From: Haloplasma contractile SSD-17B
GTDB taxonomy: Bacteria > Bacillota_I > Bacilli_A > Haloplasmatales > Haloplasmataceae
Assembly: GCF_000215935.2 (NCBI RefSeq)
Contig: NZ_AFNU02000007.1
Span: 1-64,000 of the forward strand
Reading direction: 5' to 3'
Length of the DNA stretch: 64,000 bases
Part shown: piece by piece, positions 35,655 to 63,090 of the stretch
Numbering within the stretch: the first letter of the stretch is position 1
How the letters are laid out: each line of letters begins with the position of its first letter
The notes under the pieces: generated by a model
The model's input: the letters and a program-made list of their open reading frames with translations, nothing else
What the model was told of the DNA's origin: nothing
The model's database searches: none
Translations under genes and position numbers: made by a program

Positions 35655-36305
35655 TTACTCAGTTTCATTTATTATAGATAATAAATGTTGTTTAGCATCC
35701 TGATCATCAAGATTATATCCTTTTACATGTACGGTATTCCCGTTTGTTTTAATGTCCAATTTTGAGAATGTTTTGCCTTCTGGATAATAGATTCGAATCG
35801 TTTGAGTAAAATCATAGTGTTGATTGACATTGGGAATGATGATATTCTTTTTCATTAGTTCATGGTTGTAATTCTTAACAAAGTATTTAAACTTTACAAT
35901 ATTATTTTTTGTAAATTCTAATGAGTCATTCGGAAAGTAATAATCTTTATTATAAAGTTTCCTGTGGTGGGGAGAGTTAATTGTAAGTTTACTATTATTC
36001 ATATTTACATGGACAGGTTCAACATAGTTTTGCATATAGTTAGTTGATATAACTTCAACATTTATTTGGTTTGAGTCGGATGACGGAAGAAACTCTACAT
36101 TATAGTTATAGACATCTAATTCTATTTCATCTACCAAATTATATTGATTCTTAATTACTTTATTCTCTACACCAATCGGATATGGTTTGGACTCAATAGT
36201 TATTATTTCTATATGTTCAAAAACTTCATACCCGATTCCACCCATTCCAATCAGTGTAATTAAAATCCCAACAAGAATTGTTTTAGTCTTTATCTTTAAT
36301 TTCAT
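35655..36305 (-). CDS. DUF4097-like membrane-anchored protein
   Basis: A 216-residue protein with one N-terminal transmembrane helix (KTILVGILITLIGMGGIGYE) and an outer strand-rich domain of short repeating beta turns (VDEIELDVYNYNVEFLPSSD, KLDIKTNGNTVHVKGYNL) as in DUF4097/putative-adhesin proteins. It overlaps the stop of the HAAS gene by one base, so it is coupled. This is the usual third member of PadR-HAAS-DUF4097 operons, which are thought to act in envelope stress. Confidence 0.72.
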   Translation of the reverse strand: MKLKIKTKTILVGILITLIGMGGIGYEVFEHIEIITIESKPYPIGVENKVIKNQYNLVDEIELDVYNYNVEFLPSSDSNQINVEVISTNYMQNYVEPVHVNMNNSKLTINSPHHRKLYNKDYYFPNDSLEFTKNNIVKFKYFVKNYNHELMKKNIIIPNVNQHYDFTQTIRIYYPEGKTFSKLDIKTNGNTVHVKGYNLDDQDAKQHLLSIINETE

Positions 36306-38077
36306 TAGTCTCTCACCTCTAATATGACACGTTTAAATAATCGATGGCTCATATAATATATCTTTGCAAATAAGGTCGAAACACAACGATTAATGAATTT
36401 GAAGATAGAATCAATACTAGCTGTTGAACCAATTGTTATTACAAATATTCCTAAACACACAAGACCAGGATATAAATAAACATAATGAAACTTAAACGCT
36501 GCAACTAAAAACCCGGTCATAAATCCTAGAAGTAACAATGAACCGATTGCACTTAAAAGTGCGACGATCAAATAGAGCGAAAAATAGATTGTTTTACTTG
36601 CTACATAACAGAATGATAAAAATAAATAGAATCCAATATAGATCATTGTAAATAAGAACTTGCAGAAAAGCATGATTGGTATTAGAAAGAGTGTGAACAT
36701 TAAATGGTGTTGCCCGTAATTCGTTTGTTTACTTAATTTACGTTCAAATTTTCGAGTCTGCTTCACGCTTCTTAATTCTGATTTTTGTAATTTCTTTTCA
36801 GCCTTTCGAATTGCTTTTAGTTCTATTTTTTGAGAATTCAATAGTGCTCTACTTTTCCTCCTACTTAGAGTATTATTACCCTTCATGCTATTTGCATGTT
36901 GATTAATCGCCATTGTATAGTCATATCGTGCATCTGCATTTGGTTCATGTTCATCCGCATCAAATCTTTTTGGTATCTGTTTTTCTTTGGTTAAACATTT
37001 GTATTCAGCAGAAATTTGTTTTCTCAGAAGTCTTGCGTCTTTAAATTTAGATATTGTTTTTGCAGAGTCATTGGATTTAACTTTAGATTTATTCATAGGT
37101 TGTTTGTTCGCTTGTTTCTCTGAAACATTCAATATGAGGTTTTCTTTAGTTCGTGTATAGTCACGTTCTGCCTTTACTGCGTTTAGTTCTAATCGCTTAA
37201 GAGCATTATGTTCATCTAAAATCTGATTCATTTTACGTTTACCATGCTGCACGCCTTTTTTTCCTTTAAAATAAGCTGCCATTGCTAAAGACTTAATAGC
37301 ATTATAGGCTACAATTATAGATTTTCTAATGACCGCAAGCACATTCATAGTCCCTTTTTTCATACGTGCTAGAAAGGGGTCAGCCTCTAATTTGTCATTA
37401 ACTGTACCTTTAGTACTGTAATCATGTTGATCCTGGATTAGTTTGTTTTTTACTTCTAGTTGATTTACATTGTTTACTTCCCGATTGTGACCGTGCTTCT
37501 GTCCGCCTTCTACCTCAGGCTGATTGTCATACTGATTTTCATTGTTATAGTCTGCTTCAGAATCACCATTAAGTAGAGCTTTTTCTTTTGTTTGTTTCCC
37601 TTTTTTTATCTCTATATCAGTCTGTATAGTGTTTGAATCATAATCATGAGCTACTTCAGAATCTTTGACGTCAGTCAATACATCTTGACTGAGTTCATTA
37701 TCAGATAAGTCAGGTGTATAGGTTTCATCAATTCCATCATATCTATCTTTATTTTTTCCTACATTCTTTTCAAGTTGTTCCTTCGTTTCCCGTAATAAAT
37801 AAGTCTGTTCTTCTTTGTGCTGTTTCACTTTTACTATTTCATGTTCACGGCTAGTTACTAACTCATCACAGTCTTTGCTAATTCGATATGCATCATAAAT
37901 TTCGCGAACTAACTCTTTAATATTTCCAAAATCTTTAACCGCTTCGACCTGAGACTTTCCCTCTTTTACTTTTTGATCAATTACATCTGAATATTCAGTT
38001 AATATGTCTTCGCGTTCGTTTTCATTCAAAATAATCAACTTATTTTCTAATGTTTTTAAAAATGTTTGCTTATCCAT
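36305..38077 (-). CDS. HAAS-domain (DUF1700-like) membrane protein with long charged insertion
   Basis: A 590-residue protein. Residues 1-70 are the HAAS signaling domain (FLKTLENKLIILNENEREDI, then VEAVKDFGNIKELVREIYDA). Residues about 70-430 are highly charged (Lys, Glu, Asn, Asp, Gln), without recognised domain and probably helical or disordered. Residues about 455-560 hold four transmembrane segments. HAAS proteins are usually near 200 residues, so the insertion of about 360 residues is unusual. It starts four bases after padR ends. In this family the HAAS domain is thought to contact the PadR partner. Confidence 0.8.
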   Translation of the reverse strand: MDKQTFLKTLENKLIILNENEREDILTEYSDVIDQKVKEGKSQVEAVKDFGNIKELVREIYDAYRISKDCDELVTSREHEIVKVKQHKEEQTYLLRETKEQLEKNVGKNKDRYDGIDETYTPDLSDNELSQDVLTDVKDSEVAHDYDSNTIQTDIEIKKGKQTKEKALLNGDSEADYNNENQYDNQPEVEGGQKHGHNREVNNVNQLEVKNKLIQDQHDYSTKGTVNDKLEADPFLARMKKGTMNVLAVIRKSIIVAYNAIKSLAMAAYFKGKKGVQHGKRKMNQILDEHNALKRLELNAVKAERDYTRTKENLILNVSEKQANKQPMNKSKVKSNDSAKTISKFKDARLLRKQISAEYKCLTKEKQIPKRFDADEHEPNADARYDYTMAINQHANSMKGNNTLSRRKSRALLNSQKIELKAIRKAEKKLQKSELRSVKQTRKFERKLSKQTNYGQHHLMFTLFLIPIMLFCKFLFTMIYIGFYLFLSFCYVASKTIYFSLYLIVALLSAIGSLLLLGFMTGFLVAAFKFHYVYLYPGLVCLGIFVITIGSTASIDSIFKFINRCVSTLFAKIYYMSHRLFKRVILEVRD

Positions 38078-38081
38078 ATTC

Positions 38082-38390
38082 CTACCCTCCTATATAACGG
38101 TCAATGTTTTTAGAGAACACCTTCCATTCATTTAATAATGCACGATAATGTTCTTTTCCTAGGGAAGTTAAACGATAGTATTTTCTCCTAGGCCCCTCAC
38201 TTGATTTTTCATAATAGGTATCAAAATAATTTTCATTCGTCAGTCGTTTTAGTAAAGGATAAATTGTTCCTTCTTTAACCTCAATCACTTCATTTACTTT
38301 TTGTACTAATTCATAACCATATATATCTTTTTTAGCTACTACATGTAGGACAATCATCTCGAGAACCCCTTTTTTAAACTGGGTATTCAA
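38082..38390 (-). CDS. PadR family transcriptional regulator
   Basis: A 102-residue PadR. It begins NTQFKKGVLEMIVLHVVAKK, the standard PadR opening, which together with GGTGATAGG just upstream fixes the TTG start at 38390. The winged helix includes DIYGYELVQKVNEVIEVKEG, TIYPLLKRL and GPRRKYYRLTSLGKEHY. It is the first gene of the operon with the HAAS and DUF4097 genes. Four copies of an imperfect palindrome upstream are its probable operators, implying autoregulation. Confidence 0.93.
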   Translation of the reverse strand: MNTQFKKGVLEMIVLHVVAKKDIYGYELVQKVNEVIEVKEGTIYPLLKRLTNENYFDTYYEKSSEGPRRKYYRLTSLGKEHYRALLNEWKVFSKNIDRYIGG

Positions 38391-38432
38391 ACCTATCACC
38401 GCCAATTCTACTATTATCAGTCTACATACTCA

Positions 38433-38568
38433 GTACTGTGCAATACCTAATAATGTGTAAAAAATATATTACTAGGTATCACCTAGTAGTAGGTTTTTAA
38501 AAAACTACTTGGTATTAGATAGTAGTCACACATTCATTTTATGACAACTACTATGTATTGTCAAGTAG
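38433..38568. repeat. Array of four PadR-operator-like palindromes
   Basis: Four 21-bp sites share the form YTAYT-n11-AGTA with GTAT at the same inner position. They lie at 38433-38453 (read on the minus strand), 38469-38489, 38505-38525 and 38548-38568 (plus strand). Centre spacings are about 36, 36 and 43 bases. The nearest lies about 45-65 bases before the padR start and would overlap a minus-strand -35 (TTGCAC). This is the only such array in the window. Confidence 0.7.
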
Positions 38569-38715
38569 TGTATCCTATTTTTTCCATAAATATCACAAAC
38601 ATTGACGTTTCGAGTTTAAATGAGTGATTATATTCTTCTTTAGATGAGACATCGTATTGAGTTTGTCTGAATCAGACGTTATTGTTTACTATTTTGGGTT
38701 ATATCTAATAAAGTT

Positions 38716-38746: not shown

Positions 38747-39259
38747 TTAACTATTGTTAGATTTCGAAACTTCTACCAGGTTTCTGATTCCAGATACAAC
38801 GTTTATAGCTTCTACTGAATCAAAATTCTCCTCTAAAATTGTGACTGCATAATTGTGTGGTCTCATGGTAAAGAAGTTCGATGTACTTGAAACGTCGATC
38901 ACCTTTTGTTCTCCATCATAAATGTTAAAGTTACGACCACGTATGTTTCCATCTATTCGGTACTCTTTGCCTTGTTGGTTCGTATAGACGTACTTTCGTG
39001 AAAAAAAAGTAAACAACTGTTTAATTTCACCAATTTGGTTATCCATATGATCATACATTAACCACGTTGGTCTAAAAGAAAATGCACGAATTCTCCCTTT
39101 TGAAATTAGTTCATCATGAGGACTTGTAATCGTCAACTTTCTTCTAAAGCTAAAATATTGATAGTTTATAGTTGCAATTACCTGTTCGTGCTCATCATAA
39201 ACAGGTGCTGTTCCACTTCTTATAATTTTATCAGGCATCATTAAGACTCTAGCGCACAT
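38747..39259 (-). CDS. LURP-one-related (YxjI/tubby-like) protein
   Basis: A 170-residue beta-rich protein. The alternating strands KRKLTITSPHDE-type start, GRIRAFSFRPTWLMYD, GEIKQLFTFFSRKYVYT and YRIDGNIRGRNFNIYD reproduce the YxjI/LOR barrel repeat, followed by a final hydrophobic helix region (NYAVTILEENFDSVEAINVV). The role of bacterial LOR proteins is unknown; phospholipid binding is proposed for the fold. GAAGGGAG precedes the ATG by about nine bases. Monocistronic. Confidence 0.78.
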   Translation of the reverse strand: MCARVLMMPDKIIRSGTAPVYDEHEQVIATINYQYFSFRRKLTITSPHDELISKGRIRAFSFRPTWLMYDHMDNQIGEIKQLFTFFSRKYVYTNQQGKEYRIDGNIRGRNFNIYDGEQKVIDVSSTSNFFTMRPHNYAVTILEENFDSVEAINVVSGIRNLVEVSKSNNS

Positions 39260-62926: not shown

Positions 62927-62964
62927 ATTATACATTATTTAAAATAACCCTATGCTAAATATAA

Positions 62965-63064
62965 AACACTTTCCTACGCTAGTATGAACTAGATCAGGTG
63001 ATTAGGGATCAAAGACATATTCGGGTCTTAATCTCAGTTGGCCTTTCCAACACTCCCAGTGCTT
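62965..63064 (-). ncRNA. TPP (thiamine pyrophosphate) riboswitch
   Basis: On the minus strand the aptamer shows the THI-box landmarks in order: CACTGGGAGTG at the P1/P2 entry, a small hairpin TTGG/CCAA, CTGAGA, ACCCG, then CACCTGATCTAG, ACTAGCG and TAGGAAAGTG closing P1. About 100 nt long, it stands 100 bases upstream of thiW and is followed by a terminator, giving transcriptional control of thiW-thiD-thiM-thiE. Confidence 0.96.
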
Positions 63065-63090
63065 ATTGCTTATTAAATTTTCTGACACTT

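What the first reader, a model, noticed from the sequence alone, without database searches (positions are those of the whole stretch)
38391..38580. Four evenly arranged palindromes upstream of padR
Four 21-bp sites of the form YTAYT-n11-AGTA, each with GTAT at the same inner offset, lie within 136 bases with spacings near 36, 36 and 43 bases. The first overlaps a possible -35 (TTGCAC) of the padR operon. The spacing allows cooperative or wrapped binding. Four sites is more than the usual one or two of PadR operons, and the GTAT core differs from the ATGT/ACAT operators known for PadR.
Basis: seen in the sequence. Interest (0 to 1): 0.65.

Follow-up and report, generated by a model that had tools for sequence, protein, structure and literature searches.

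The report
Four-site operator of a padR-HAAS operon
The four repeats are very probably binding sites for the PadR repressor encoded just downstream: one is the repressor's standard site on its own promoter, found in dozens of relatives, and three are extra copies in an unusually long leader seen only in this genome, a real but modest variation on a known autoregulatory switch.

Summary
The four sites are real and sit where stated. A weight matrix built only from padR promoters of other species (40 operators) ranks them 1st to 4th of 63,978 positions in the window (28.3, 20.6, 15.0, 14.8 bits; next best 4.8). They are very probably operators of the adjacent PadR. Orthologs have this single operator a median of 48 nt upstream of padR. 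Here it lies at about -174, and the leader between promoter and start holds three additional, progressively weaker sites. Of 41 orthologous upstream regions, 39 have one site, one has two, this one four; the triple array occurs at no other padR among 296 genomes of the class. TACT-n11-AGTA is not a new core: C. difficile cdPadR1 binds exactly this motif, and a padR-DUF1700 operon is known to be autorepressed (Listeria LltR). Most likely it is an autorepressor whose main operator blocks RNA polymerase, with downstream sites adding occupancy or a roadblock. Helical phasing of the 36-bp steps does not favour wrapping.

The parts
38547..38569 (-). Site 4: main, conserved operator (ACTACTTGACAATACATAGTAGT on the minus strand), contains the -35 TTGACA
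   Evidence: 28.3 bits with a matrix from other species; same sequence and promoter overlap in orthologs
38536..38564 (-). Sigma-A-type promoter of the padR operon, TTGACA-17-TAAAAT
   Evidence: 11 of 12 consensus matches; 38 of 40 orthologous operators have TTGACA, 39 of 40 a -10 at 16-18 bp
38504..38526 (-). Site 3: extra operator just downstream of the predicted transcription start (inferred about 38529)
   Evidence: 20.6 bits, rank 2 in the window
38468..38490 (-). Site 2: extra operator in the leader; TACTAGGT-n3-ACCTAGTA is perfectly symmetric
   Evidence: 15.0 bits, rank 3; 8-bp arms
38432..38454 (+). Site 1: extra, weakest operator in the leader, inverted; one good half-site (TACTGTGCA)
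   Evidence: 14.8 bits, rank 4
38391..38529 (-). Predicted long leader (about 139 nt) holding sites 1-3; most orthologs have a leader of only about 10-15 nt (inferred from operator position)
   Evidence: Operator start at -174 here, median -48 in orthologs; RNA folding not remarkable, z = -1.05
38082..38390 (-). padR gene, TTG start with GGCGGTG ribosome-binding site
   Evidence: Pfam PadR 7e-20; relatives with solved structures include cdPadR1, 5dym
36305..38077 (-). Membrane protein with N-terminal HAAS domain, same operon
   Evidence: Pfam HAAS 2.2e-08; similar protein follows padR in the 14 orthologs inspected
35655..36305 (-). 216-aa protein, third gene, overlaps the stop of the HAAS gene; no Pfam match

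Best explanation
The array is the operator region of an autorepressed padR-HAAS envelope operon. A PadR dimer binds each TACT-n11-AGTA site. Site 4 is the ancestral, strongest operator; it covers the -35 and spacer of the only well-supported promoter, so bound PadR excludes RNA polymerase. Binding and repression are inferred from conservation and from the behaviour of cdPadR1 and LltR, not shown. Sites 3, 2 and 1 are lineage-specific additions in a leader lengthened by about 125 bp. Site 3 lies just past the predicted start point and, with site 4 (43 bp, nearly in phase), brackets the -10. Sites 2 and 1 are weaker downstream sites that would add local occupancy or a roadblock, giving tighter or more graded repression (inference, about even odds). 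A membrane signal passed through HAAS would release PadR (proposed in the literature, not tested here).
For: The matrix from other species ranks all four sites 1-4 of 63,978 positions, at a null rate of about 0.2 per Mb. The promoter-operator is conserved in orthologs at a median of 48 nt upstream, with TTGACA in 38 of 40 and a -10 in 39 of 40. HAAS-like proteins follow padR in the 14 orthologs inspected. Genome-wide the motif TACTn4AATACn2AGTA with at most 1 mismatch has 14 hits including all four here; the 10 others do not exceed the reversed-pattern control of 25, so this PadR looks like a local autorepressor. cdPadR1, a relative at E 9e-20, binds TACT(N11-12)AGTA in its own promoter (PMC5050560). 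The Listeria padR-DUF1700-DUF4097 operon is 100-150-fold derepressed in the lltR mutant (PMC6624303).
Against: No binding or expression data for this protein. No same-genus genome was returned and none of the seven family genomes has an ortholog at E <= 1e-32, so conservation of the three extra sites cannot be tested. Sites 1 and 2 score about half of site 4 and may be weak. A second PadR in the genome (contig 14, 48% identical) with TACC-type sites could cross-bind.
Confidence: 0.85

Rival explanations
1. Only site 4 (perhaps also site 3) works; sites 1 and 2 are weak decoys or remnants with no regulatory effect, tolerated in a lengthened leader. This differs from the best explanation only in the role of the extra sites.
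For: Score falls from 28.3 to 14.8 bits away from the promoter; a single site suffices in 39 of 41 orthologous regions; 36-bp steps are out of helical phase.
Against: Four sites, each at a chance rate of 0.2 per Mb or less, within 138 bp and with an exactly repeated 36-bp spacing, suggest selection and not drift.
Confidence: 0.35
2. Two promoters, each with its own operators: the conserved one at site 4 and a second at TTGCAC/GATAAT under site 1.
For: A weak 9-of-12 hexamer pair exists at 38442-38413.
Against: 3.1 such matches are expected by chance in this region; not conserved in orthologs, while the site 4 promoter is.
Confidence: 0.1
3. The repeats act in RNA: stem-loops in the leader give attenuation or a terminator, not PadR binding.
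For: Site 2 forms an 8-pair hairpin followed by a T-rich stretch.
Against: Folding of the leader is ordinary (z = -1.05); no Rfam match there; site 4 lies upstream of the start point; the sites match the DNA operator of 40 orthologs.
Confidence: 0.04
4. The sites bind another regulator (for example the second PadR of the genome or an unrelated factor).
For: A paralogous padR-HAAS system on contig 14 has related sites of AGTACC-n11-GGTACT type.
Against: Paralog sites have TACC arms, these have TACT; TACT arms go with orthologs of this PadR in about 40 cases.
Confidence: 0.06

Closest known systems
cdPadR1 (CDR20291_0991) of Clostridioides difficile, PDB 5DYM, PMC5050560
   Same: PadR-s2 autoregulator; [quoted passage not shown]
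   Different: Two sites reported there, four here; here the conserved site embeds the -35 and three sites lie in a long leader
LltR operon lmo0599-lmo0601 of Listeria monocytogenes, PMC6624303
   Same: padR-DUF1700-DUF4097 operon repressed by its own PadR
   Different: No multi-site operator described in the passages read; third gene here has no Pfam DUF4097 match
HAAS-PadR signalling dyad, PMC11237479
   Same: PadR wHTH next to a membrane protein with an N-terminal HAAS domain
   Different: That work describes gene neighbourhoods, not operators, in the passages read
LmrR of Lactococcus lactis, PMC5428041
   Same: PadR-family repressor with more than one binding region and autorepression
   Different: ATGT/ACAT half-sites 8-10 bp apart; controls a multidrug transporter

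Membership tests
PadR family repressor | PadR winged-helix domain | tested here: met
   PF03551 at 7.1e-20, 71 bits against cut-off 27
PadR family repressor | Short PadR-s2 form with conserved Trp in the C-terminal helix | tested here: met
   About 103 aa; W in NEWKVF aligns with a Trp in 7wjp, 3l7w and 5dym
cdPadR1-type operator TACT(N11-12)AGTA | Inverted TACT/AGTA arms at 11-12 bp | tested here: met
   Sites 2, 3, 4 exact, site 1 with one arm TATT; motif from PMC5050560
cdPadR1-type operator TACT(N11-12)AGTA | Bound by the cognate PadR | not testable with these tools
   Needs a gel shift or footprint
HAAS-PadR dyad | HAAS-domain membrane protein encoded beside padR | tested here: met
   PF22564 2.2e-08, 34.7 bits over cut-off 27, adjacent gene
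padR-DUF1700-DUF4097 operon (LltR type) | DUF4097 exoprotein as third gene | tested here: inconclusive
   Third gene overlaps and is co-directional but has no Pfam match even at E 5
PadR operator of ATGT-n8-ACAT type | ATGT/ACAT half-sites 8-10 bp apart | tested here: not met
   Arms are TACT/AGTA 11 bp apart

The most novel reading that the evidence does not exclude
The leader array is a lineage-specific multi-dimer operator that changes the output of a standard PadR-HAAS switch: one strong promoter site plus three graded downstream sites give cooperative or roadblock repression with a steeper or multi-step dose response, an architecture not seen at the other PadR operons examined.
Probability: 0.35. 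Interest if true: 0.45.

Novelty: new variant of a known kind. Interest (0 to 1): 0.3.

Why it matters
It gives a predicted operator, with its promoter, for a whole clade of PadR-HAAS envelope operons across Bacilli and Lachnospiraceae (TACTTGACAATRCANRGTA with the -35 inside), for which little experimental operator data was found here. The four-site version is a natural test of what extra downstream sites do for a small autorepressor. It does not change the understanding of PadR proteins in principle.

Tried and rejected
A literature search for the conserved operator string found only unrelated papers among those listed; two searches for multi-site PadR operators found nothing. Mobile-element or duplicated-repeat origin: the region has no second copy in the genome (best other match 23 bp) and no match in phages. 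Tandem duplication of site 4: the flanks of the sites do not look alike, so separate gain is more likely (by eye only). A large dyad about site 2 (44-nt arms, 73% complementary) is explained by the equal 36-bp spacing of pseudo-palindromes. RNA structure: z = -1.05. A regulon elsewhere: no excess over the reversed-pattern control.

Full report
Observation. The four sites are present. Written as 23-mers they are 38432-38454, 38468-38490, 38504-38526 and 38547-38569, centres 36, 36 and 43 bp apart. In 20,000 dinucleotide shuffles of the 341-bp intergenic region, three exact TACT-n11-AGTA were seen once; the mean number was 0.04. When any 4-nt half-site and any spacing of 6-15 is allowed, three copies arise in about 0.8% of shuffles, so the local count alone is only moderately strong. 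Genome-wide, ACTACT-n11-AGTAGT occurs exactly twice in 3.4 Mb, both here.

Context. padR is on the minus strand with its start at about 38390 (TTG, behind GGCGGTG). It is followed by a 590-aa protein with a HAAS domain and an overlapping 216-aa gene. The PadR belongs with short PadR-s2 proteins; relatives of known structure include cdPadR1.

Orthologs. Loci encoding PadR at 55-68% identity were fetched from other Bacilli and Lachnospiraceae. Their upstream regions carry one conserved element, TACTTGACAATRCANRGTA, usually 45-53 nt upstream of the start, median 48. TTGACA within it is the -35: 38 of 40 have it exactly and 39 of 40 have a -10-like hexamer at 16-18 bp. The window's site 4 with its promoter is almost the same sequence (TTGACAATACATAGTAGTTGTCATAAAATG here, TTGACAATACATAGTAGTTGGTATAAAATG in L022 and L010). 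In the 14 orthologs inspected, a HAAS-like protein follows padR (judged by sequence, not by a family scan of each).

Independent test of the other sites. A symmetric matrix was made from 40 orthologous operators without the window. Over the window it ranks the four sites 1 to 4 of 63,978, with 28.3, 20.6, 15.0 and 14.8 bits; the next best position has 4.8. In 5 Mb of order-3 Markov sequence, 14.8 bits is reached about 0.2 times per Mb.

How unusual. With a 12-bit threshold, 39 of 41 regions (the window and relatives at 55% identity or more) have one site, one has two, and the window four. Members of one other genus (L073 at 55%, L076 at 50% identity) have two and three. Many orthologs also have a TAYT half-site exactly 17 nt upstream that shares the AGTACT of the main site (22 of 39); the window lacks it. 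A search for three TACT-n11-AGTA in a row over 296 genomes of the class found only this locus and, in one other genome, a tandem repeat of a different kind. What is peculiar here is that the canonical operator starts at about -174, and three extra sites of falling strength fill the added ~125 bp between promoter and gene. Other orthologs with long leaders (L024, L025, L030) have no extra sites.

Mechanism. Shown: sequence, conservation, promoter overlap, number of sites. Inferred: PadR binding and autorepression, from cdPadR1, which binds TACT(N11-12)AGTA in its own promoter (PMC5050560), and from LltR, whose loss raises its own padR-DUF1700-DUF4097 operon 100-150-fold (PMC6624303). Site 4 would block the -35; site 3 would lie at about +4 to +26 and is nearly in phase with site 4 (4.1 turns); sites 2 and 1 would act as added occupancy or roadblock. 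The 36-bp steps are 3.43 turns each, which places neighbours on nearly opposite faces, so wrapping or simple same-face cooperativity is not specifically supported. HAAS-to-PadR signalling is a published proposal (PMC11237479).

Limits. No genome of the same genus was returned; the seven family genomes lack a close ortholog, so selection on the extra sites is untested. Nothing here measures binding.

Verdict. Real, well explained, mostly ordinary in kind; the four-site leader is a new variant. Interest 0.3.

Noticed in passing
G000 contig C14:30779-31281 (L101): A second padR-HAAS-like operon, here with a DUF4097-like third gene (by sequence look); its two candidate operators have TACC/GGTA arms (AGTACCTTGCTATAAAAGGTACT, AGTACCTTGTATTAACAGATACT), 133 bp apart, suggesting separate specificity from the window PadR.
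   Followed up: partly
G000 contig C4:248289-248311 (L107, L148): An isolated site, AGTACTTTATATGACAAAGTATT, scoring 15.0 bits, about 240 bp upstream of a small gene before an arginyl-tRNA synthetase-like gene; possible second target or chance.
   Followed up: partly
orthologous upstream regions, e.g. L009, L012, L136: A conserved TAYT half-site 17 nt upstream of the main operator makes two overlapping palindromes sharing AGTACT in many orthologs (TAYT in 22 of 39); L136 has three overlapping sites at 17-bp steps. Possibly two PadR dimers on overlapping sites, or an upstream promoter element.
   Followed up: partly
L073 and L076 (50-55% identity): padR genes of one other genus carry two and three operators, the outer ones 47 bp apart, the nearest parallel to the window's array.
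   Followed up: no
window 36305-38077: The HAAS protein is long (590 aa) with a large charged middle part before its membrane segments; orthologs inspected are 180-494 aa.
   Followed up: no
window 38747-39259: LURP-one-related (PF04525) protein upstream of padR on the same strand.
   Followed up: no
window 62954-63067: TPP riboswitch on the minus strand (Rfam RF00059, 67.6 bits).
   Followed up: no
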